Assembly: GCF_014201145.1 (NCBI RefSeq)
Contig: NZ_JACHDP010000001.1
Location: 868,001-932,000, forward strand
Length of the DNA stretch: 64,000 nt
Direction of reading: 5' to 3'
From: Micromonospora parathelypteridis
GTDB taxonomy: Bacteria > Actinomycetota > Actinomycetes > Mycobacteriales > Micromonosporaceae
Below, one piece after another: positions 45,585 to 51,674 of the stretch. The notes below the pieces were generated by a model, which was not told where the DNA came from, did not search any database, and saw nothing but the letters and a program-made list of their open reading frames with translations. Every line of letters starts with the position of its first letter. Within the stretch, counting starts at the first letter, position 1. Made by a program: the position numbers and the translations under genes.

Positions 45585-45645
45585 TCGAACGCGTTGCAGA
45601 TGATGGCCCGAACGTAGGGAGCTATCCGCAGTGGATGGCAGTCGA

Positions 45646-45715
45646 GGCCGTGACCGGGATCGAACCGGTGTACGCGGTTTTGCAGACCGCTCCCTTACCA
45701 CTCGGGCACACGACC
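45646..45715 (-). tRNA. tRNA-Cys (GCA)
   Basis: Full cloverleaf; acceptor GGTCGTG/CACGGCC, anticodon loop CTGCAAA, T-loop TTCGATC, U73 as expected for Cys, no encoded CCA. It is the 3'-most tRNA of the array (transcription runs leftward). Confidence 0.92.
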
Positions 45716-45725
45716 AGGCAGAAGC

Positions 45726-45797
45726 GCCCGCGGAGGGAATCGAACCCCCGACACCCAGCTCCGGAAGCTGGTGCTCTATCCCCTGAGCTACACGGGC
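45726..45797 (-). tRNA. tRNA-Arg (CCG)
   Basis: Anticodon arm CCAGC-TTCCGGA-GCTGG; acceptor GCCCGTG/CGCGGGC; T-loop TTCGATT; no CCA. Ten bases from tRNA-Cys. Confidence 0.92.
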
Positions 45798-45803
45798 ATG
45801 CGT

Positions 45804-45886
45804 GGGAGCGGAGAGATTCGAACTCCCTGAGCGCGAACGCACCGGGGTTACAGCCCGGCCCACCTCACCATCGGTGGCGCACTCCC
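45804..45886 (-). tRNA. tRNA-Tyr (GTA)
   Basis: Class II tRNA with a long variable arm, loop CTGTAAC, acceptor GGGAGTG/CGCTCCC, A73. Six bases from its neighbours. Confidence 0.93.
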
Positions 45887-45891
45887 TTGGG

Positions 45892-45961
45892 GTGACTGGC
45901 CGGTACTGACCCGGCGTCTGCGGGACCACGACCCGCGGCTCTACCATTGAGCTACAGCCAC
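45892..45961 (-). tRNA. tRNA-His (GTG), atypical
   Basis: Anticodon arm GCGGG-TCGTGGT-CCCGC gives GTG, but position 33 is C instead of the invariant U. T-arm GCCGG-GTCAGTA-CCGGC lacks the TTC of a normal T-loop. Base -1 is U opposite C73, so the G-1 identity element of His is not encoded. Geometry is otherwise regular (70 bases). Confidence 0.75.
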
Positions 45962-45982
45962 AACTACGGCCCGAAGGCCAGT

Positions 45983-46053
45983 ACCCGCACCTGGACTCGA
46001 ACCAGGGCAACCCGCTGTGTGGGAGCGGTGCTCTGCCGCTGAGCTATACGGGC
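45983..46053 (-). tRNA. tRNA-Val (CAC), C33 variant
   Basis: Arm CCGCT-CCCACAC-AGCGG gives CAC with C at 33. Acceptor GCCCGTA/TGCGGGT has a G1-U72 wobble; A73; T-loop TTCGAGT. Confidence 0.85.
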
Positions 46054-46058
46054 GCGGC

Positions 46059-46130
46059 TCCGGTGGCTGGGCTCGAACCAGCGCCTGACGGATTAACAGT
46101 CCGTTGCCCTACCGACTGGGCGACACCGGA
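46059..46130 (-). tRNA. tRNA-Asn (GTT)
   Basis: Perfect acceptor TCCGGTG/CACCGGA, loop CTGTTAA, T-loop TTCGAGC, G73. No CCA. Confidence 0.94.
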
Positions 46131-46131
46131 A

Positions 46132-46205
46132 TGGTCGCGCGTGCGGGGCTCGAACCCGCTTCATCGCCTTGAAAGGGCGAGGGCCTACCCATAACCGAAC
46201 GCGCG
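46132..46205 (-). tRNA. tRNA-Glu (TTC)
   Basis: Acceptor CGCGCGT/ACGCGCG, anticodon arm TCGCC-CTTTCAA-GGCGA, A73 and CCA encoded (46132-46134). Confidence 0.92.
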
Positions 46206-46211
46206 TTGCGT

Positions 46212-46282
46212 GCCCCGAGCTGGTGTCGAACCAGCGACCTCCGCCTTGTCGAGACGGCGTTCTCCCGCTGAACTACCGGGGC
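46212..46282 (-). tRNA. tRNA-Val (GAC), C33 variant
   Basis: Arm CCGTC-TCGACAA-GGCGG gives GAC with C at 33; acceptor GCCCCGG/TCGGGGC, T-arm GCTGG-TTCGACA-CCAGC, A73. Geometry regular. Confidence 0.82.
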
Positions 46283-46292
46283 AGGGAATAGG

Positions 46293-46353
46293 GGGCCGGT
46301 CGCGGAGTGTTTGCCGCGCTTACGCCTGGCACTCCCTGTGCCAGGACCGACCC
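46293..46353 (-). ncRNA. tRNA-like element lacking a D-arm
   Basis: Between tRNA-Val and tRNA-Met. An 8-bp closing stem (GGGTCGGT/ACCGGCCC), a hairpin CCTGGCAC-AGGGA-GTGCCAGG and a T-arm-like CGCGG-N8-CCGCG immediately before the 3' strand form a three-stem tRNA-like fold without D-arm or TTCGA loop. It may be a degenerate tRNA or a mimic; expression unknown. Confidence 0.45.
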
Positions 46354-46368
46354 GAACGGATAAGGATG

Positions 46369-46447
46369 TGGTGGCGGGGGCGGGATTCGAACCCGCGATC
46401 TCCGGCTTATGAGGCCGGCGAGGACAACCGAACTCCTCTACCCCGCA
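46369..46447 (-). tRNA. tRNA-Met (CAT), initiator-like
   Basis: Loop CTCATAA. Position 1 (U) cannot pair with C72, followed by six pairs GCGGGG/CCCCGC; D-stem has A11-U24. Both are initiator hallmarks. The anticodon stem has only two of the three conserved G-C pairs (GGC/GCC). A73 and CCA encoded. Could be an initiator-type tRNA or a derivative. Confidence 0.85.
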
Positions 46448-46449
46448 GT

Positions 46450-46522
46450 GGGCCGCCGGGGACTCGAACCCCGAACCCTCTGATTAAAAGTCAGCAGCTC
46501 TACGCCATTGAGCTAGCGGCCC
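46450..46522 (-). tRNA. tRNA-Lys (TTT)
   Basis: Acceptor GGGCCGC/GCGGCCC, loop CTTTTAA, T-loop TTCGAGT, A73. Two bases from tRNA-Met. Confidence 0.93.
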
Positions 46523-46529
46523 GTGTTGT

Positions 46530-46601
46530 GCCCCGCGCTGGAATCGGACCAGCGACACGCAGTTTAGGAAACTGCTGCTCTATCCCCTGAGCTAGCGGGG
46601 C
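46530..46601 (-). tRNA. tRNA-Arg (CCT)
   Basis: Acceptor GCCCCGC/GCGGGGC, arm GCAGT-TTCCTAA-ACTGC. T-loop is TCCGATT (C in place of U55), otherwise regular. Confidence 0.9.
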
Positions 46602-46610
46602 GTACCTTGT

Positions 46611-46681
46611 GCCTCCGGGGAATTTCGAAATCCCGCCCCTCCGATTAAGAGTCGGATGCTCTACCTCTGAGCTACGAAGGC
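46611..46681 (-). tRNA. tRNA-Lys (CTT)
   Basis: Arm TCCGA-CTCTTAA-TCGGA, acceptor GCCTTCG/CGGAGGC, A73. T-stem last pair is U-U instead of the conserved G53-C61. Confidence 0.9.
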
Positions 46682-46682
46682 T

Positions 46683-46769
46683 TGGCGGAAGGTTGACGAG
46701 TCGAACGCCAGGGCTTGCACCCCCCTCCGGTTTTCAAGACCGGCTGGCCCCCACGGGCCGGAACCCTCC
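46683..46769 (-). tRNA. tRNA-Ser (TGA)
   Basis: Class II tRNA with long variable arm; arm CCGGT-CTTGAAA-ACCGG; acceptor GGAGGGT/ACCTTCC; G73 and CCA encoded (46683-46685). Confidence 0.93.
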
Positions 46770-46817
46770 AAGCTGTGCGATTCGTCGGCTGGCCCCGCCG
46801 CTACGTCTGCCAGACGT

Positions 46818-46897
46818 GCCCGGGGAGTCGAACCCCGGCAACACCCACCGCCCCCGGGTAACCCCAGACCGGCGACATACCCGGTGGCGATCCGGGC
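46818..46897 (-). pseudogene. Degenerate tRNA remnant
   Basis: A good T-arm (GGGG-TTCGACT-CCCC) is followed directly by GGGCA, which can pair with GCCC about 75 bases upstream (GCCCGGA), but part of the acceptor strand is missing and no sound D or anticodon arm can be drawn. Probably a decayed class II tRNA. Confidence 0.35.
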
Positions 46898-46912
46898 CTT
46901 GCGAATCAACGT

Positions 46913-46986
46913 CGGGTAGACAGGATTCGAACCTGCGAGCCTCCCGGTCCCGAACCGGGCGCGCTACCAAACTGCGCCACTACCCG
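46913..46986 (-). tRNA. tRNA-Pro (CGG)
   Basis: Perfect acceptor CGGGTAG/CTACCCG, arm CCCGG-TTCGGGA-CCGGG, T-loop TTCGAAT, A73. Confidence 0.95.
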
Positions 46987-47024
46987 TAGACGGCGCGGGA
47001 CTTACGCGCCGCGCTCACAACTAC

Positions 47025-47037
47025 TACTCTCCGGTGC
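47025..47037 (+). promoter_or_regulatory. -10 box of the antisense membrane-protein gene
   Basis: TACTCT at 47025-47030, seven bases before the GTG at 47038: a probable leaderless start on the strand opposite to the tRNAs. Confidence 0.35.
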
Positions 47038-47592
47038 GTGCCCCCGACATCACCGTCCCCCTGGGCCTGGGCCGGATGGGGCGCGCTCGAAGCCCTCGGA
47101 ACGCTCGCCGCCGCGCTCGTCGCCCTCTCCGTGTACCTCAGCGAGGTTCGCCGCCGCCGCCGCGCCGAGCGGAGCACGGTCCGAGTCTGGGCGTCCAAGG
47201 AAGCCGACGAGACCGTGATTTACATCGCCAACGATTCCGCCGTCCCGATCGTGGATATCACCCTCGACGCCTTCTATCAGGAGGATTTCTGGTCAAGCTG
47301 GCTTTCGGGTGGAGTGAGATGGTCTGCAATCGGGTGGCTCGCTAGGGGTCCAGCCATCGTCCACCCGTCTCAAACGTTGGCCCTTAAGCTGAATTACCTG
47401 AGGCTATATGGCGTGAAGGAGGCAATCAAAAGGCTACCCGAATTGACCCTTCTGCAAATGCGCTACGAAGCGCGTGCGGAGCCGAGGAGGGTGGCGAGCT
47501 TCCGCCGCGTCAAGAATCCCCCTACGAAAATTCGCATCGTCGGTTTCGGTGAGTTGGAGCAATGCGTTGGGCAGTACCCGAAGTCGGGATAG
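47038..47592 (+). CDS. Small membrane-anchored protein inside the tRNA array (antisense)
   Basis: 184 residues on the plus strand, against the tRNA direction. One N-terminal membrane helix (about 12-36: WGALEALGTLAAALVALSVY) followed by basic SEVRRRRRAER and a soluble domain with no family I recognise. Codon us is less GC-rich than the neighbours (for example TATCAGGAGGATTTCTGG). Its last eight bases overlap tRNA-Pro(GGG). Probably cargo of the island; function unknown. Confidence 0.65.
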   Translation: MPPTSPSPWAWAGWGALEALGTLAAALVALSVYLSEVRRRRRAERSTVRVWASKEADETVIYIANDSAVPIVDITLDAFYQEDFWSSWLSGGVRWSAIGWLARGPAIVHPSQTLALKLNYLRLYGVKEAIKRLPELTLLQMRYEARAEPRRVASFRRVKNPPTKIRIVGFGELEQCVGQYPKSG

Positions 47593-47657
47593 CCGGATTC
47601 GAACCGACGACCTCTGCACCCCCGGTGCAGCGCGCTACCAACCTGCGCCATATCCCG
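47585..47657 (-). tRNA. tRNA-Pro (GGG), C33 variant
   Basis: Arm CTGCA-CCGGGGG-TGCAG gives GGG with C at 33; acceptor CGGGATA/TATCCCG; T-loop TTCGAAT; A73. Confidence 0.88.
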
Positions 47658-47662
47658 AAAGA

Positions 47663-47734
47663 GCCCCCGGCGCGAATCGAACGCGCGACACCGAGATCCG
47701 TAATCTCGTGCTCTATCCACTGAGCTACGGGGGC
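47663..47734 (-). tRNA. tRNA-Arg (ACG)
   Basis: Acceptor GCCCCCG/CGGGGGC, arm CGAGA-TTACGGA-TCTCG, T-loop TTCGATT. Lies 20 bases downstream of the RNase P RNA gene. Confidence 0.94.
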
Positions 47735-47754
47735 AATGTGTTGCGGCGAGGGAA

Positions 47755-48109
47755 GCCGGCCGGTACGCCGGGTTCTGTCCCACCCCGGCGACCCGGTGGT
47801 GGGGGCGACCATCCATCTCGGCCTACCGTCGCCGGCAGGCTCTAGCGGCCAACCCGCACGCATCAGGCGGGCCGCCCGCGTGCTGTTCGGCCTTGCTCCG
47901 GGTGGGGTTTACCGTGCCGCCCCCGTCACCGGAGGCGCGGTGGGCTCTTACCCCACCGTTTCACCCTTACCGGCGGTGGTGCTGCCGGCGGTCTGTTCTC
48001 TGTGGCACTGTCCCGCGCCTTTCGGCGGGTTCCCGTTAGGAACCACCCTGCCCTGCGGAGCCCGGACGTTCCTCGGCGGCCTGGTGGCCGACGCGGTCGC
48101 CTGGCTGGC
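47755..48109 (-). ncRNA. rnpB: RNase P RNA (type A) embedded in the tRNA array
   Basis: About 355 bases. All conserved blocks occur in order on the minus strand: GAGGAACGTCCGGGCTCC (P4 5' strand), GGGCAGGGTGGTTCCTAACG, CCACAGAGAACAGACCGCC, GGTAAGGGTGAAACGGTG with GGTAAGAGCCCACCGC, GGTAAACCCCACCCGGAGC, GAGATGGATGG, and GGGACAGAACCCGGCGTACC (P4 3' strand). P1 pairs GCCAGCC with GGCCGGC. The usual GAGGAAAGUC has A changed to C and the partner U in CCCGGCUU is G, so P4 pairing is kept. It sits 13 bases after tRNA-Ile and 20 bases before tRNA-Arg, so it is in the array transcript. Confidence 0.95.
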
Positions 48110-48122
48110 ATTCTCGCTGCGT

Positions 48123-48196
48123 GCCGACGGCTGGATTCGAACCAGCGGCCCCCGACTTATCAGGTCGGTGCTCTTACCGGGCTGAGCTACGACGGC
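48123..48196 (-). tRNA. tRNA-Ile (GAT)
   Basis: Arm CCGAC-CTGATAA-GTCGG, T-loop TTCGAAT, A73. Acceptor GCCGTCG/CGTCGGC has one U-U mismatch at 5-68. Confidence 0.92.
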
Positions 48197-48197
48197 T

Positions 48198-48287
48198 TGG
48201 CGAAGGGTGAGGGATTCGAACCCCCGGCGGTGTTACCCGCTCCGCATCAGCAGTGCGGCGCCATCGACCAGACTCGGCCAACCCTTC
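48198..48287 (-). tRNA. tRNA-Ser (GCT)
   Basis: Class II tRNA; perfect acceptor GAAGGGT/ACCCTTC, arm CCGCA-CTGCTGA-TGCGG, variable stem GCGG/CCGC, G73 and CCA encoded (48198-48200). Confidence 0.95.
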
Positions 48288-48295
48288 AAGGGCCT

Positions 48296-48904
48296 TCAAA
48301 CGACGAAGGCCGCGTACTTCTCGTCTAGGACGATGCTCGATCGAACGTTCCGAACGACCGCGAACGGGAGTAGGTATGTGGTGCCGGCGGCGGTCGCCAC
48401 GAAGAAGTAGTCGACCTCGTCGTTCGTGTAGGGAACCTGCCGAACACGCCCGCGCGAGTTCAGCTCCGCTGCTGCCTGATACGAACTGCGCAGCAGTCGG
48501 ACCCGATAGCGGCCACTCCTGCGTTCCACGGCCGCCGTTGTCTTGACCTGCACCCGCTTCAGCCCGTCGTCCGACTCGGCGATGAGGTCGTAAACCGCCG
48601 GCTCCAGTGGTACCGACACGTTGTACCCCCGGTCGAGGAACCAGCGAGCCGCAATGCTGAGCCCCGATCGGCCGTCGGGCGCAGGCGGGCGCGAGAAGTG
48701 GTGCGCCTGCGGCGGTACCGGCACGGAGCTGTTCTGCCGGCCGAGGTGGGACACATCCAACCCAAGCTCCGTGGCGGTCCTCTTGACGAACGTCTGGGGA
48801 TAGGTCCGGCTCTTGCCCAACGCTTCCATCACGTCGGCCCAGCAGGAGGCGGATTTGACCGCATCACGGACCTGCTCGTCGGTGTACGTGCGCTGACTTC
48901 CCAC
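48296..48904 (-). CDS. PD-(D/E)XK endonuclease of the group-I-intron-associated (homing) type
   Basis: 202 residues. N-terminal DNA-binding helix pair like HNH/homing enzymes (TDEQVRDAVKSASCWADVME, GLDVSHLGR); catalytic core with PAVYDLIAESDDGLKRVQVKTT, giving the Asp and QVK of the fold. Its 3' end lies nine bases from tRNA-Ser(GCT). No intron remains around it, so it looks like a free-standing homing endonuclease of the array. GTG 48904 is preceded by TAAGCT and six bases: probably leaderless. Confidence 0.8.
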   Translation of the reverse strand: MGSQRTYTDEQVRDAVKSASCWADVMEALGKSRTYPQTFVKRTATELGLDVSHLGRQNSSVPVPPQAHHFSRPPAPDGRSGLSIAARWFLDRGYNVSVPLEPAVYDLIAESDDGLKRVQVKTTAAVERRSGRYRVRLLRSSYQAAAELNSRGRVRQVPYTNDEVDYFFVATAAGTTYLLPFAVVRNVRSSIVLDEKYAAFVV

Positions 48905-48966
48905 GGGTATAGCTTACAGTCCAGCAGGGCAGCGCCATAGACCGCTCATGCCACCCCTCCGTGCGC

Positions 48967-49038
48967 GCTGACGACGGGACTCGAACCCGCGGCCTTCCGG
49001 CTGACAACCGGATGCTCTTGCCACTGAGCTACGCCAGC
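48967..49038 (-). tRNA. tRNA-Asp (GTC)
   Basis: Arm TCCGG-TTGTCAG-CCGGA, acceptor GCTGGCG/CGTCAGC, T-loop TTCGAGT, G73. Confidence 0.94.
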
Positions 49039-49065
49039 TTGGTCCCGGCCGGTGGCCGGGAGAGT

Positions 49066-49137
49066 GGAGACGAGGGGGGTCGAACCCCTGACCTTCTGAT
49101 TGCGAAACAGATGCCCTACCACCTGGGCCACGTCCCC
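49066..49137 (-). tRNA. tRNA-Ala (CGC)
   Basis: Loop TTCGCAA; acceptor GGGGACG/CGTCTCC contains the G3-U70 identity pair of Ala; A73. One U-U mismatch at 31-39. Confidence 0.93.
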
Positions 49138-49152
49138 ATGATGTTGCTGCGT

Positions 49153-49225
49153 ACCCGGAGCGCGATTCGAACGCGCACTGTCCCCGCCCTGAACGGGGTG
49201 CCTCCTGCCGTTGGGCTACCCGGGC
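49153..49225 (-). tRNA. tRNA with Leu anticodon (CAG), class I
   Basis: Arm CCCCG-TTCAGGG-CGGGG gives CAG. D-arm GCC...GGC and variable loop ACAGT of five bases only, whereas bacterial tRNA-Leu is class II. Acceptor GCCCGGG/TCCGGGT with G1-U72; A73. Amino-acid identity therefore uncertain. Confidence 0.85.
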
Positions 49226-49237
49226 ATATTTTGGCGT

Positions 49238-49308
49238 GCCGACGCCCGGTGTCGATCCGGGTGCCCCTCCGTTATGAGCGGAGTGCTCTGCCGTTGAGCT
49301 ACGTCGGC
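49238..49308 (-). tRNA. tRNA (CAT): elongator Met or Ile2
   Basis: Perfect acceptor GCCGACG/CGTCGGC, arm CTCCG-CTCATAA-CGGAG, T-loop ATCGACA (A54). Fully paired 1-72, so not an initiator; a lysidine-modified Ile tRNA is possible. Confidence 0.88.
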
Positions 49309-49315
49309 GAGGAGA

Positions 49316-49387
49316 GCCAGCGACGGGAGTTGAACCCGCTGCCTCCGGATTACGAAACCGGCGCTCGGCCTGGTGAGCTTCGCTGGC
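49316..49387 (-). tRNA. tRNA-Thr (CGT)
   Basis: Perfect acceptor GCCAGCG/CGCTGGC, loop TTCGTAA, T-loop TTCAACT; U-U at 31-39. No CCA. Confidence 0.92.
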
Positions 49388-49388
49388 G

Positions 49389-49464
49389 TGGAGCCGGCGG
49401 CCGGGATCGAACCGGCCCGCTCGCGCTTACAAGACGCGTGCTCTGCCAACTGAGCTACGCCGGC
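49389..49464 (-). tRNA. tRNA-Thr (TGT)
   Basis: Perfect acceptor GCCGGCG/CGCCGGC, loop CTTGTAA, T-arm GCCGG-TTCGATC-CCGGC, U73 and CCA encoded. Confidence 0.94.
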
Positions 49465-49465
49465 C

Positions 49466-49541
49466 TGGTGCCCCCGACACGATTCGAACGTGCGCTGACG
49501 GCCGCCTCACGACCGTGCCTCTACCGTTGGGCTACGAGGGC
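49466..49541 (-). tRNA. tRNA with Leu anticodon (GAG), class I
   Basis: Arm CGGTC-GTGAGGC-GGCCG gives GAG; D-arm GCC...GGC; variable loop TCAGC of five bases; A73 and CCA encoded. Same unusual build as the CAG and CAA tRNAs of the array. Confidence 0.85.
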
Positions 49542-49547
49542 TTGCGC

Positions 49548-49618
49548 TCCCAGGCCAGGATTCGAACCCAGCTCCCCGCATCCAGAGTGCGGTGTCTTAC
49601 CGAATAGACGACCCGGGA
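49548..49618 (-). tRNA. tRNA-Gln (CTG)
   Basis: U1-A72 start typical of Gln, acceptor TCCCGGG/CCTGGGA, arm CCGCA-CTCTGGA-TGCGG, T-loop TTCGAAT, G73. Confidence 0.93.
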
Positions 49619-49655
49619 ATGGTGGCCGGCGAGCCGCGGACTCGCCGGCCGGCGA

Positions 49656-49898
49656 TCAGCGCTGCACCGTACTGGACCAGGTGGGGACCGACGGCTGGAA
49701 CCGCAGCTCCATGCCCGCCTCGGCGGGGGTCAGGTCGCAAAGGCGCAGGATCTTTGGCATCGGGAAGACGCCGATGAGCCTGTCGGGCTCGGCTTCGTGG
49801 ATCTCGGCGACCTGGCGCATGAGCATCCGGATCGCGTGTCTGACCGGGACCCGGTGCAGCGGTCCCAGGTCGGCGTTGAGGACCATAACGGCGTCCAC
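49656..49898 (-). CDS. HNH-endonuclease-type N-terminal domain without the HNH motif
   Basis: 80 residues. VMVLNADLGPLHRVPVRHAI and IGVFPMPKILRL match the N-terminal segment that precedes the HNH motif in many actinobacterial HNH endonucleases, but the protein stops before any HNH residues. GTG 49898 has AAGGAGG upstream, so it is well translated. Either a truncated homing endonuclease or a small tRNA-array protein using the same fold. Confidence 0.6.
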   Translation of the reverse strand: MDAVMVLNADLGPLHRVPVRHAIRMLMRQVAEIHEAEPDRLIGVFPMPKILRLCDLTPAEAGMELRFQPSVPTWSSTVQR

Positions 49899-49931
49899 CG
49901 GGCCCTCCTTTCTCTCGTGGCCGGTGGCGCT

Positions 49932-50007
49932 TGGAGCCGCCGGCCGGAGTCGAACCGGCGACCTGCTCCCTACCATGGAGCTGCTCTACCGACTGAGCTA
50001 CGACGGC
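49932..50007 (-). tRNA. tRNA-Thr (GGT)
   Basis: Acceptor GCCGTCG/CGGCGGC, arm GCTCC-ATGGTAG-GGAGC, T-arm GCCGG-TTCGACT-CCGGC, U73 and CCA encoded. Confidence 0.92.
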
Positions 50008-50021
50008 ATGGTGTGCTGAGT

Positions 50022-50095
50022 GCCCCGAGCGGGATTCGAACCCGCACTGTGCGCAGTTTGAGTGCGCTGCCTCCTACCAGTTGGGCTACCGGGGC
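50022..50095 (-). tRNA. tRNA with Leu anticodon (CAA), class I
   Basis: Arm GCGCA-CTCAAAC-TGCGC gives CAA; D-arm GCC...GGC; variable loop ACAGT; acceptor GCCCCGG/TCGGGGC; A73. Third class I Leu-anticodon tRNA. Confidence 0.87.
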
Positions 50096-50200
50096 ATGCT
50101 TCCGCAGGTAGCGGCATCAGGCCTTGATCATCCACTGAGCGGCAGTAAGTTCCGGATCGGTAACTCCCGCGGCGACTTCCCCCACTGGTCGAGTGTGAGC
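50096..50200. other. Spacer inside the tRNA array
   Basis: About 105 bases between tRNA(CAA) and tRNA-Gln(TTG) without a cloverleaf. I looked here for the missing tRNA-Phe and did not find it. Confidence 0.4.
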
Positions 50201-50276
50201 TCCGGGAGCAGGAATCGAACCTGCGTCTGTACCGGGATCCAAAGTCCCGTCGCCCTTGCCAGCAGAGCATCCCGGA
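50201..50276 (-). tRNA. tRNA-Gln (TTG)
   Basis: Perfect acceptor TCCGGGA/TCCCGGA with U1-A72, arm CGGGA-CTTTGGA-TCCCG, T-loop TTCGATT, G73. Confidence 0.93.
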
Positions 50277-50284
50277 ACGGTTGA

Positions 50285-50356
50285 GCGGTCGGCGGGCACC
50301 GACCCCGCTTCTTCGGTTTGGAAGACCGACGTGTCCGCCAAGTTCACCACGACCGC
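50285..50356 (-). tRNA. tRNA-Gly (TCC), atypical T-loop
   Basis: Perfect acceptor GCGGTCG/CGACCGC, arm TCGGT-CTTCCAA-ACCGA. T-arm GCGGG-GTCGGTG-CCCGC: G54 and no A58, similar to the odd T-loop of the array's tRNA-His. U73. Confidence 0.85.
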
Positions 50357-50374
50357 GTGGCGTTTTGCTTGCGT

Positions 50375-50447
50375 AGGCCGTACGGGGCTCGAACCCGTAA
50401 TCTCCTGGCTGAGAACCAGGTGAGCTGCCAGCTTGCTCCAACGGCCC
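50375..50447 (-). tRNA. tRNA-Glu (CTC)
   Basis: Arm CCTGG-TTCTCAG-CCAGG, T-loop TTCGAGC, acceptor GGGCCGT/ACGGCCT with G1-U72, A73. Confidence 0.9.
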
Positions 50448-50458
50448 ATGGAGCCGGC

Positions 50459-50544
50459 GGGGATCGCGGTCGCGCATCCACGATCGCCGCCAACGTGCCC
50501 TCCGGTCTGTCGAACCGGCGCTCTCTTAGCTGAGCTACAACCCC
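50459..50544 (-). pseudogene. Degenerate tRNA with Val-type anticodon (GAC)
   Basis: The 5' half is regular (GGGGTTG, D-arm GCTC/GAGC, arm CCGGT-TCGACAG-ACCGG giving GAC with C33). The 3' half has no TTCGA loop; a T-arm-like CGTGG-N8-CCGCG precedes ATCCCC, which pairs only partly with the 5' end. Decayed or highly divergent. Confidence 0.4.
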
Positions 50545-50545
50545 A

Positions 50546-50621
50546 TGGTCCGGGACCGGGGTGTCGAACCCCGTGTCTCTCGCTCCCAAAGCGAGCGGGT
50601 CAGCCGTCTCCCTCGTCCCGG
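50546..50621 (-). tRNA. tRNA-Pro (TGG)
   Basis: Perfect acceptor CCGGGAC/GTCCCGG (C1-G72 as in Pro), arm CTCGC-TTTGGGA-GCGAG, T-loop TTCGACA, A73 and CCA encoded. Confidence 0.94.
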
Positions 50622-50629
50622 AGGTGGTG

Positions 50630-50666
50630 CCCCCGGCCGGCCCATGCAGGCGCCGGCCGGGGTTTT
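50630..50666 (+). terminator. GC-rich hairpin with U-tract on the strand opposite to the tRNAs
   Basis: Stem ccccggccggc (50631-50641) with gccggccgggg (50652-50662), ten-base loop, followed by TTTT at 50663-50666 on the plus strand. It could stop antisense transcription into the array; on the minus strand it would fold just ahead of tRNA-Pro. Confidence 0.5.
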
Positions 50667-50731
50667 ACCTATGCCATCCACTGTGGAGTTGAGAATCTGC
50701 GACGCCGCCGGCCGCAGCCGGGACGAAAAGC

Positions 50732-50803
50732 AGGGGCGGCAGGACTCGAACCTGCAACCTTCGGTTTTGGAGACCGGTGCTCTACCAGTTGAGCTACGCC
50801 CCT
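50732..50803 (-). tRNA. tRNA-Trp (CCA)
   Basis: Perfect acceptor AGGGGCG/CGCCCCT, loop CTCCAAA, T-loop TTCGAGT, G73. First tRNA of the array in the direction of transcription; one C-A mismatch at 27-43. Confidence 0.94.
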
Positions 50804-50823
50804 ATGAAGTTGTTGCCAGGTAA

Positions 50824-50862
50824 CGAAAAAGCCGCCCTATCCCTGTCGGGGTGGGCGGCTTC
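50824..50862 (-). terminator. Intrinsic terminator between the small upstream gene and the array
   Basis: Stem gccgccc/gggcggc with an inner ccc/ggg helix; read on the minus strand it is followed by TTTTT. It ends the transcript of the gene at 50879-51178 before the tRNAs begin, so the array needs its own promoter. Confidence 0.75.
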
Positions 50863-50878
50863 GCAGCTTGCGCTGGCG

Positions 50879-51178
50879 CTATTCGCGCCGCCACCCCGGC
50901 TTCCAGTTCTGCTCACTCACGCACAGATCGTGGGTTCGCCCAATCGAGGGCAGCACGCCACCGCTGCGCGGCATGAACCGCGTGGTTTCGGTGTAGGCGT
51001 ACTGCAACACGGGGAACTCCTTGGGTTGGTCGGGACGGCCTTGCTCATTCAAGGTAGGCGCTGTGCCGATCGGATGGCAATGGATATTCCGAGCTGCCTT
51101 CATGTGACTCGCAGCCGCGATGTGCCCATATTTCTGGACAGGGCGGGGGGCTTCGAGCAGCTCGTCCAGCTCGGCCAT
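50879..51178 (-). CDS. Small hypothetical protein at the head of the tRNA island
   Basis: 99 residues from ATG 51178 (MAELDELLEAPRPVQKYGHI...). No membrane segment and no family recognised; scattered His and Cys. Support comes from an intrinsic terminator right after the stop and from TAGCAT upstream as a possible -10 box. Coding status moderate. Confidence 0.45.
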   Translation of the reverse strand: MAELDELLEAPRPVQKYGHIAAASHMKAARNIHCHPIGTAPTLNEQGRPDQPKEFPVLQYAYTETTRFMPRSGGVLPSIGRTHDLCVSEQNWKPGWRRE

Positions 51179-51218: not shown

Positions 51219-51488
51219 TCAACCCTCGACAGCGGGTCGGCTGCGCACCACCAGCTCGTCGATCTCCAACCGGCCGACGCGCAGCTCCCGCACGACCGCC
51301 CGGCGGATGACCAGCCGCCCAACGACCAGCACCCCGACGGCCACGGCGCCGACGGCCAGGGCCCCTACGGCGAGGGCGCCGAGCGACGCCGCCCCCGCAG
51401 CCTGCGCGCCTGTAGCCACCGCGCCCGTCGCCACCGCGCCGTTGGCGCGCGTCCTGGTCAACCGCATCAGGCGAACCTCTCGCTTCAT
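51219..51488 (-). CDS. Small repeat protein (ALAVG-type pentad repeats)
   Basis: 89 residues from ATG 51488. The middle consists of five-residue repeats (ALAVG ALAVG AVAVG VLVVG) flanked by GAVATGAVATGA and, after it, RLVIRRAVVRELRVGRLEID. The period suggests a solenoid, bactofilin- or pentapeptide-like, or a membrane-inserting segment with a charged beta tail. Function unknown. Confidence 0.65.
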   Translation of the reverse strand: MKREVRLMRLTRTRANGAVATGAVATGAQAAGAASLGALAVGALAVGAVAVGVLVVGRLVIRRAVVRELRVGRLEIDELVVRSRPAVEG

Positions 51489-51674
51489 GCCCCCATTGTC
51501 CGTGCACCGTCGGCCACCCGCGCCCCACAGATCCCGGATGTCACCCCACAGTTCCATCGTCGCCGGTACCGCCCGGCGTCATTCGCTGCATCCATGCGTC
51601 GAAGGCGCCGGCATTGGACGGCAAGTCTCGTCCCGGCGCGAACAGCGCCGGGACGAGCGCTCGGTTCACCACCG

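What the first reader, a model, noticed from the sequence alone, without database searches (positions are those of the whole stretch)
47755..48109. RNase P RNA gene nested between tRNA-Ile and tRNA-Arg inside the array
Every conserved block of bacterial type A RNase P RNA is present in order, with 13 and 20 bases to the flanking tRNAs, so it must be co-transcribed with its own substrates. rnpB is normally a separate single-copy gene. A tRNA array bringing its own catalytic RNA would be a self-processing tRNA module; I know of no description of this.
Basis: partly seen in the sequence, partly recalled or inferred. Interest (0 to 1): 0.95.

Follow-up and report, generated by a model that had tools for sequence, protein, structure and literature searches.

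The report
Second RNase P RNA inside tRNA array
A cluster of 33 tRNA genes in a bacterial chromosome contains, squeezed between two tRNA genes, a second full-length gene for RNase P RNA, the catalytic RNA that trims tRNA precursors, and dozens of tRNA clusters on viral contigs carry one too, so such clusters likely bring along the enzyme RNA that would process them.

Summary
A class A RNase P RNA gene (253.9 bits, cut-off 100) lies on the minus strand at 47748-48112, 8 nt after tRNA-Ile and 13 nt before tRNA-Arg, in a one-strand array of 33 tRNAs. The same complete genome has a housekeeping rnpB (280 bits) about 650 kb away; the two are 82.5% identical. Another species of the genus has the same Ile-rnpB-Arg arrangement (96.1% identical). 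Three more keep only relics, and 19 of 20 further related arrays show no trace, so the copy is dispensable there. The layout recurs: I tabulated 52 array-embedded rnpBs (43 clusters), 48 of them on IMG/VR viral contigs, often 0-15 nt from the flanking tRNAs. Ten are only 191-243 nt; in the three aligned to Rfam the specificity domain is gone, while catalytic-core helices covary. None of 39 such viral records has a detectable RnpA gene. Best reading: an accessory RNase P RNA, co-transcribed with its substrates, freed by tRNA processing and probably working with host RnpA. Activity is untested. Partial precedents: yeast mitochondrial fMet-RPM1-Pro, engineered self-cleaving conjugates, extra mycobacterial RNase P RNAs.

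The parts
47748..48112 (-). array-embedded RNase P RNA gene (rnpB), bacterial class A, 365 nt
   Evidence: RF00010 253.9 bits, full model
48062..48074 (-). conserved 5' core block GAGGAACGUCCGG (P4 5' strand region)
   Evidence: read from the sequence and the CM alignment
47767..47778 (-). conserved 3' core block ACAGAACCCGGC (P4 3' strand region)
   Evidence: read from the sequence and the CM alignment
48121..48196 (-). tRNA-Ile(gat), immediately upstream in the transcript (8 nt gap)
   Evidence: ARAGORN; RF00005
47661..47734 (-). tRNA-Arg(acg), immediately downstream in the transcript (13 nt gap); RNase P cleavage at its 5' end would also set the 3' end of the rnpB transcript (inferred)
   Evidence: ARAGORN; RF00005
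45644..50803 (-). array of 33 tRNA genes, 32 different anticodons; 25 of 33 gaps between successive RNA genes are 25 nt or less
48296..48904 (-). 202-aa PD-(D/E)XK endonuclease ORF inside the array; relatives lie in the arrays of G122 and G053
   Evidence: Pfam PF11645 3.3e-14, phrog_5018 7.6e-17 and phrog_10822 HNH endonuclease 7.9e-6, tblastn
50804..51110 (-). leader upstream of the first tRNA (Trp); with the first tRNAs it is conserved at >=83% in 25 of 160 genus genomes; possible promoter region (inferred)
   Evidence: query 50640-51110; no good sigma-70-type consensus there
47038..47592 (+). 184-aa ORF on the opposite strand inside the array; no family hit
49656..49976 (-). 106-aa ORF inside the array; no family hit

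Best explanation
This is a second, structurally intact class A RNase P RNA gene inside a one-strand tRNA array, and it is likely transcribed with its neighbouring tRNAs, freed by their processing, and used with the host RnpA protein to help mature the array's own tRNAs. Shown: the gene, its strand and position, its separateness from the housekeeping rnpB, its conserved core and compensated base pairs, and the recurrence of the same layout in viral tRNA arrays. Inferred: with only 8 and 13 nt between rnpB and its tRNA neighbours, 3'-end processing of tRNA-Ile would make its 5' end, and RNase P cleavage at the 5' end of tRNA-Arg would make its 3' end, so each molecule made could help to release the next (a self-reinforcing loop started by host RNase P). 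Inferred: the trait was selected on phages or other mobile elements that must mature a burst of tRNAs quickly or in a cell whose RNase P is limiting; the chromosomal arrays of this genus are resident descendants in which the copy is being lost.
For: CM score and full-length match; two rnpB in a complete genome; same Ile-rnpB-Arg order in G054 at 96.1% identity, both array copies about 82-83% identical to the housekeeping copies; 12 compensatory changes against the own housekeeping copy. Recurrence: a scan for rnpB alone, not selected for tRNAs, gave 37 viral contigs, 35 with an RF00010 match, of which 20 have a tRNA and 19 at least three tRNAs within 1.5 kb; a tRNA-upstream scan added 39 contigs, 34 matching RF00010, 32 with at least three tRNAs. 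All 260 of 260 and 321 of 321 tRNAs within 1.5 kb are on the rnpB strand, against 0 of 25 housekeeping rnpB loci of the genus with any tRNA within 1.5 kb. Of 52 tabulated cases the next tRNA starts within 15 nt of the 3' end in 30 of 49 and the previous ends within 15 nt in 38 of 51 (the 5' count is inflated by the second scan; in the 19 cases of the unselected scan the figures are 11 of 18 and 10 of 19). 33 different flanking-tRNA pairs and several separate branches in a tree point to repeated capture. Core motif GAGGAA-GTC in 52 of 52 (required by both search patterns) and an ACARAA-CC motif at the 3' end in 49 of 52. Viral records: terminase PF03237 in 6 of 39; portal plus terminase in G218, terminase plus tail tube in G220, terminase in G166.
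Against: No expression, processing or activity data. RnpA found in 0 of 39 viral records. In the genus, of 160 genomes only G000 and G054 have an intact array copy; G053 and G122 keep relics, G141 a 48-nt relic, and the other 19 of 20 further arrays fetched show no rnpB by BLAST, 11 of them with Ile and Arg 1-13 nt apart. Between the window and G054 copies, of 6 changed pairs 3 are broken, 2 compensated and 1 half-consistent, so selection between these two is weakly documented; P1 has A-C mismatches. 14 of the 35 unselected viral hits have no tRNA within 1.5 kb of the stretch held. No isolated, named phage with this layout was found by BLAST with six array rnpBs.
Confidence: 0.6

Rival explanations
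1. Passenger copy: an rnpB was captured by chance in a tRNA array and is carried as neutral cargo; it is expressed but irrelevant, or already decaying.
For: Relics in G053 (171 nt), G122 (85 nt) and G141 (48 nt), and no trace in 19 of 20 further arrays of the genus; host has an intact housekeeping rnpB.
Against: 33 different flanking-tRNA pairs, always tRNA-sense orientation, and covariation among ten of the most reduced array RNAs are not expected of repeated chance capture and drift. The array copies of window and G054 stay full length.
Confidence: 0.22
2. Interference: the array RNA titrates host RnpA or competes with host RNase P, shifting tRNA maturation towards the element during infection, rather than adding processing capacity.
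For: No RnpA gene in the 39 viral records searched; three reduced RNAs keep the catalytic domain but lack the specificity domain.
Against: The element's own tRNAs also need RNase P; the catalytic core is kept, which a pure decoy would not need.
Confidence: 0.1
3. Back-up against host defence or shut-off: the copy replaces host RNase P RNA when it is degraded or limiting during phage infection, and position in the array is only a way to share a promoter.
For: Occurs mostly with near-complete tRNA sets on viral contigs, which phages are proposed to carry to resist tRNA-targeting defences (abstract of PMC10264068 in a search listing).
Against: No defence that attacks RNase P RNA was looked for or found here; does not by itself explain abutment with 0-15 nt gaps.
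Confidence: 0.08

Closest known systems
Bacterial RNase P RNA, class A (Rfam RF00010), housekeeping rnpB
   Same: Full-length match, conserved core, 93 of 100 model pairs standard.
   Different: Extra copy, inside a tRNA array, 82.5% identical to the host's own copy and lacking an about 36-nt insertion that the latter has.
tRNA array units of mycobacteria, their phages and plasmids (PMC5966550; section 13 and search passages seen)
   Same: Dense one-region tRNA sets in chromosomes, plasmids and phages, with endonuclease genes and other non-coding RNAs (tmRNA and a structured RNA of about 430 nt).
   Different: RNase P is not mentioned in that text (0 hits). In one such plasmid, pCBMA213_1, the structured RNA in the stretch I fetched is GOLLD (RF02032, 196.7 bits) and no rnpB was found there.
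Yeast mitochondrial RPM1 (PMC3797045; passages seen)
   Same: RNase P RNA gene listed in one transcription unit between tRNA-fMet and tRNA-Pro.
   Different: Organelle, sole mitochondrial RNase P RNA, not an extra copy on a mobile tRNA array.
Engineered self-cleaving pre-tRNA-RNase P RNA conjugates (Frank, Harris, Pace 1994; reference entry and a passage in PMC11143913; original not seen)
   Same: Ribozyme and substrate tRNA in one RNA.
   Different: Artificial; cleavage in cis is shown there and only inferred here.
Extra RNase P RNA homologues in Mycobacterium austroafricanum and M. sp. YC-RL4 (PMC9569102; passages seen)
   Same: Additional RNase P RNA copies, horizontally acquired by the authors' view, next to an endonuclease gene, one with an altered specificity domain.
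   Different: The passages do not place them in a tRNA array or link them to phage arrays; I did not fetch those genomes.
Type P RNase P RNA of Pyrobaculum (PMC4919922; passages seen)
   Same: Catalytic domain with almost no specificity domain, as in L240, L249 and the Achromobacter array RNA.
   Different: Archaeal; the RNAs here match the bacterial class A model.

Membership tests
Bacterial RNase P RNA class A | Score above the curated covariance cut-off over the whole model | tested here: met
   253.9 bits against 100, positions 1-367
Bacterial RNase P RNA class A | Consensus helices formed by standard pairs | tested here: met
   93 of 100 pairs; 12 compensatory changes against the own housekeeping copy
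Bacterial RNase P RNA class A | Conserved core blocks and the GGU that pairs with tRNA 3' RCC (role recalled) | tested here: met
   GAGGAACGUCCGG, GGUAAGGGUGAAA, AGAUGGAUGG, ACAGAACCCGGC and GCGGGUUGGCC read in the alignment
Bacterial RNase P RNA class A | Catalyses 5' maturation of pre-tRNA with RnpA | not testable with these tools
   needs bench work
Extra (non-housekeeping) rnpB | A separate rnpB exists in the same complete genome | tested here: met
   C1:1569589-1570004, 280 bits
[quoted passage not shown]
   33 tRNAs in 5.2 kb, one strand
tRNA-punctuated RNase P RNA (as yeast mitochondrial RPM1) | RNase P RNA between two tRNA genes in one transcription unit | tested here: inconclusive
   position and strand met (8 and 13 nt gaps); co-transcription not testable here
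   PF00825 in 0 of 39 array-bearing viral records, control 10 of 14 genomes; the window array's ORFs gave no RnpA-like hit
Phage-borne module | Array-embedded rnpB on records with phage hallmark genes | tested here: met
   terminase PF03237 in 6 of 39; portal, terminase or tail genes in G218, G220, G166. For the window itself no phage gene was found among the ORFs scanned

The most novel reading that the evidence does not exclude
Large phages and related mobile elements carry self-reinforcing tRNA-maturation modules: tRNA arrays punctuated by their own RNase P RNA, repeatedly captured, always in tRNA sense, released by the very cleavage it catalyses, and in some lineages pared down to a catalytic-domain-only RNA of about 190-225 nt, a form so far seen by me described only for archaea; the window holds a domesticated descendant.
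Probability: 0.45. Interest if true: 0.93.

Novelty: new variant of a known kind. Interest (0 to 1): 0.85.

Why it matters
If active, a mobile tRNA array would carry not only its tRNAs but the ribozyme that matures them, a natural counterpart of laboratory RNase P RNA-tRNA conjugates. It gives phage tRNA biology a missing processing step that can be tested, shows that RNase P RNA can be a mobile accessory gene, and supplies a set of minimal bacterial-type RNase P RNAs (191-243 nt) for the open question of how much of the ribozyme is dispensable.

Tried and rejected
Chance match or pseudogene: rejected for the window by score, core and pair counts. Relocated housekeeping gene: rejected, a second rnpB exists. 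Assembly error: unlikely, an independent assembly (G054) has the same order. Recent duplication of the host rnpB: unlikely at 82.5% identity. Donor of the array rnpB: a tree puts the two array copies with the genus housekeeping copies at 98 support, but most of the 16 'HK' rows that I added proved not to be rnpB or to be cut short, and BLAST finds rnpBs of other families of the order equally close, so the donor is unresolved.

Mycobacterial and Tsukamurella arrays as rnpB carriers: the fetched stretches of pCBMA213_1 and Tsukamurella plasmid 8 hold tRNAs and, in the former, GOLLD, but no rnpB. rnpB hits on named phage or plasmid records: the ones I opened look like chromosomal context or have no tRNA array; not followed further. 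G111's 22-bit second match has no tRNA nearby and no similarity to the window: ignored. Own promoter or terminator at rnpB: none convincing, the scan is at chance level. Integrase or phage genes beside the window array: none among the 10 ORFs scanned with Pfam and 5 with PHROGs; I did not scan every ORF of the window. Empty-site comparison at the window locus: inconclusive, flanks differ between genomes.

Rows dropped before counts: of 34 RF00010-positive records of the second viral scan, one search used the 30 for which loci were returned and dropped L245 (two tRNAs); from the first scan it used the 19 of 35 with at least three tRNAs; L099 (one tRNA) and 15 others were left out. L186 (Berkelbacteria MAG, small tRNA cluster) was left out of the 52 because its array rnpB is the only one found in that genome. 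Eight groups of near-identical RNAs are among the 52; 43 clusters remain.

Full report
WHAT IS THERE. On the minus strand the window has 33 tRNA genes in 5.2 kb (45644-50803), 32 anticodons, with 25 of 33 gaps between successive RNA genes at 25 nt or less. Between tRNA-Ile(gat) and tRNA-Arg(acg) lies a class A RNase P RNA, 48112..47748, 253.9 bits against a cut-off of 100, covering the whole model. The gaps are 8 nt (Ile to rnpB) and 13 nt (rnpB to Arg). There is no room for a promoter other than inside tRNA-Ile, and the sigma-70/terminator scan is at chance level, so co-transcription is the simplest reading, though not shown.

IT IS A SECOND COPY. The window comes from a 7.01-Mb single-contig genome, which has one further RF00010 match at C1:1569589-1570004, 280 bits, with no tRNA within 1.5 kb. 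The array copy is 82.5% identical to it and lacks an insertion of about 36 nt. Of 100 model pairs with letters on both sides the array copy forms 93; against the housekeeping copy 12 pairs changed on both sides and stayed paired, 9 changed on one side consistently, 3 are broken. The genus is not named by the tools; genome size and G+C suggest an actinomycete (my inference).

THE SAME THING IN THE GENUS. All 160 genus genomes searched have an rnpB; five had two matches. G054 has a second full-length copy (267.1 bits) in the same Ile-rnpB-Arg place, 8 and 11 nt from its neighbours, 96.1% identical to the window's. G053 has a 171-nt remnant between Ile and Arg, G122 an 85-nt remnant; G111's weak match has no tRNA beside it. 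I fetched 20 of these arrays (5-37 tRNAs found in each stretch): none has an intact rnpB, one (G141) has a 48-nt relic between Ile and Arg, and in 11 others Ile and Arg are 1-13 nt apart without rnpB. The genes flanking the window array are not next to these arrays, with two exceptions for one repeated small ORF (51219-51557) and a weak match in G091, so the arrays look mobile or dispersed. A PD-(D/E)XK endonuclease sits inside the window array and inside those of G122 and G053. So here the rnpB is an old, dispensable passenger of the array; two intact copies remain in what I searched. In 150 genomes of the order no further near-identical second copy was seen.

THE SAME THING ON VIRAL CONTIGS. 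A scan of IMG/VR for an rnpB motif alone gave 37 contigs; 35 have an RF00010 match, 31 above the cut-off. Of the 35, 20 have a tRNA within 1.5 kb and 19 have at least three, and all 260 tRNAs counted are on the rnpB strand. Of 25 housekeeping rnpB loci of the genus none has a tRNA within 1.5 kb. The other viral hits have none and may be bacterial flanks. A second scan asking for a T-arm upstream of rnpB gave 44 contigs, 39 of them new; 34 of 39 match RF00010, 17 above the cut-off, and 32 of the 34 have at least three tRNAs nearby, 321 of 321 on the rnpB strand. The same scan of 84,980 bacterial and archaeal species genomes gave 85 stretches, 80 fetched: 30 have no tRNA near (chance), 46 have a single tRNA (32 of them tRNA-Gly(ccc) before what is probably the housekeeping rnpB, mostly Bacteroidales MAGs), and 3 lie among several tRNAs: Achromobacter anxifer (32 tRNAs; housekeeping copy 202 bits, array copy 82.7 bits), a Patescibacteria MAG (24 tRNAs and a tmRNA; two copies) and a Berkelbacteria MAG whose only rnpB found is in a small tRNA cluster. 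This shows both that a single tRNA beside a housekeeping rnpB is nothing special in some lineages and that large arrays with rnpB are mainly a viral-contig phenomenon in these collections.

TABLE OF 52. Taking the cases with at least three tRNAs within 1.5 kb (48 viral, the window, G054, Achromobacter, Patescibacteria; drops told in Tried and rejected), the downstream tRNA starts within 15 nt in 30 of 49, the upstream tRNA ends within 15 nt in 38 of 51, and both hold in 23 of 52. The upstream figure is biased by the second scan; in the 19 cases of the unselected scan the numbers are 11 of 18 and 10 of 19. In several the RNA abuts both tRNAs with no spacer (for example L240, L249, L081, L047). 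There are 33 different flanking-tRNA pairs and 43 sequence clusters. 34 of 52 score 100 bits or more; the weakest scores 49.7.

ARE THE CARRIERS PHAGES? IMG/VR calls them viral. Of 39 array-bearing records searched, PF03237 terminase is in 6; by PHROGs, G218 (369 kb) has portal and terminase, G220 (385 kb) terminase and tail tube, G166 (463 kb) terminase; the single proteins I scanned from G210, G194, G231 and G175 gave no structural hit. PF00825 (RnpA) is in 0 of 39, control 10 of 14. BLAST with six array rnpBs found no isolated named phage with this layout among 50,697 records, a limit of the evidence.

REDUCED RNAs. Ten of the 52 are 191-243 nt. For three (L240, L249 and the Achromobacter copy) the Rfam alignment shows the specificity domain replaced by a few to some tens of nt, with P18 also missing, and the core blocks kept. 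An alignment of ten short forms (191-252 nt) folds into 31 pairs, 21 with double-sided changes; covariation score 0.719 against 0.227 in shuffles (0 of 500 reach it) and at most 0.148 when slid. The structure was derived from the same alignment, so the slid control leans its way. Not all ten have the same domain loss. Reduced bacterial RNase P RNAs are reported in CPR bacteria (PMC8172020, passages), and a catalytic-domain-only type P in Pyrobaculum (PMC4919922, passages).

MECHANISM. Shown: position, strand, second copy, core, compensated pairs, recurrence, absence of RnpA in 39 records. Inferred: one long precursor; host RNase P starts; 3' processing of the upstream tRNA and RNase P cleavage at the downstream tRNA free the RNA; it joins host RnpA and adds to the pool that cuts further array precursors.

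LITERATURE. None of their listings showed a description of RNase P RNA inside phage or mobile tRNA arrays; the library lacks most subscription journals and all preprints, so absence in print is not established. Closest items are listed under Closest known systems.

VERDICT. Observation confirmed; interpretation partly supported; a new variant of known parts (class A RNase P RNA plus mobile tRNA array) rather than a new kind, unless activity and self-release are shown.

Noticed in passing
L240:482-672, L249:1501-1695, L259:1501-1724 (Achromobacter anxifer NZ_CAHLAR010000005.1): Array-embedded RNase P RNAs of 191-224 nt that match the bacterial class A model but lack the specificity domain.
   Followed up: partly
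L145-L219 (32 loci with tRNA-Gly(ccc) directly upstream): In many Bacteroidales MAGs a tRNA-Gly(ccc) lies directly upstream of rnpB, probably the housekeeping one; a simple tRNA-rnpB linkage unrelated to arrays.
   Followed up: no
window 48296-48904 (-): PD-(D/E)XK endonuclease with an HNH-family-like N-terminus inside the array; relatives inside the arrays of G122 and G053, a candidate for moving the array.
   Followed up: partly
L112, L128, L188: tmRNA genes in the same stretches as rnpB-bearing tRNA arrays.
   Followed up: no
L275:11904-12328 (pCBMA213_1): GOLLD RNA beside the plasmid tRNA array, probably the structured RNA of about 430 nt mentioned in PMC5966550.
   Followed up: partly
window 51219-51557 (-); L069:17513-17869; L314:7088-7408: A small repetitive ORF that recurs near tRNA arrays in G053 and G054 and in other places of genus genomes.
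   Followed up: no
L280 (NZ_CP108665.1, Streptomyces globisporus plasmid): Full-size rnpB (291.9 bits) on a 1.05-Mb linear plasmid record, no tRNA family hit in the 8-kb stretch.
   Followed up: no
L279 (NZ_CP109732.1, Enterobacter roggenkampii plasmid): An rnpB-like BLAST match next to garR/garL/garD and rsmI on a 91-kb plasmid record with phage genes on the other side: a chromosomal segment on a phage-like plasmid, or an assembly join.
   Followed up: no
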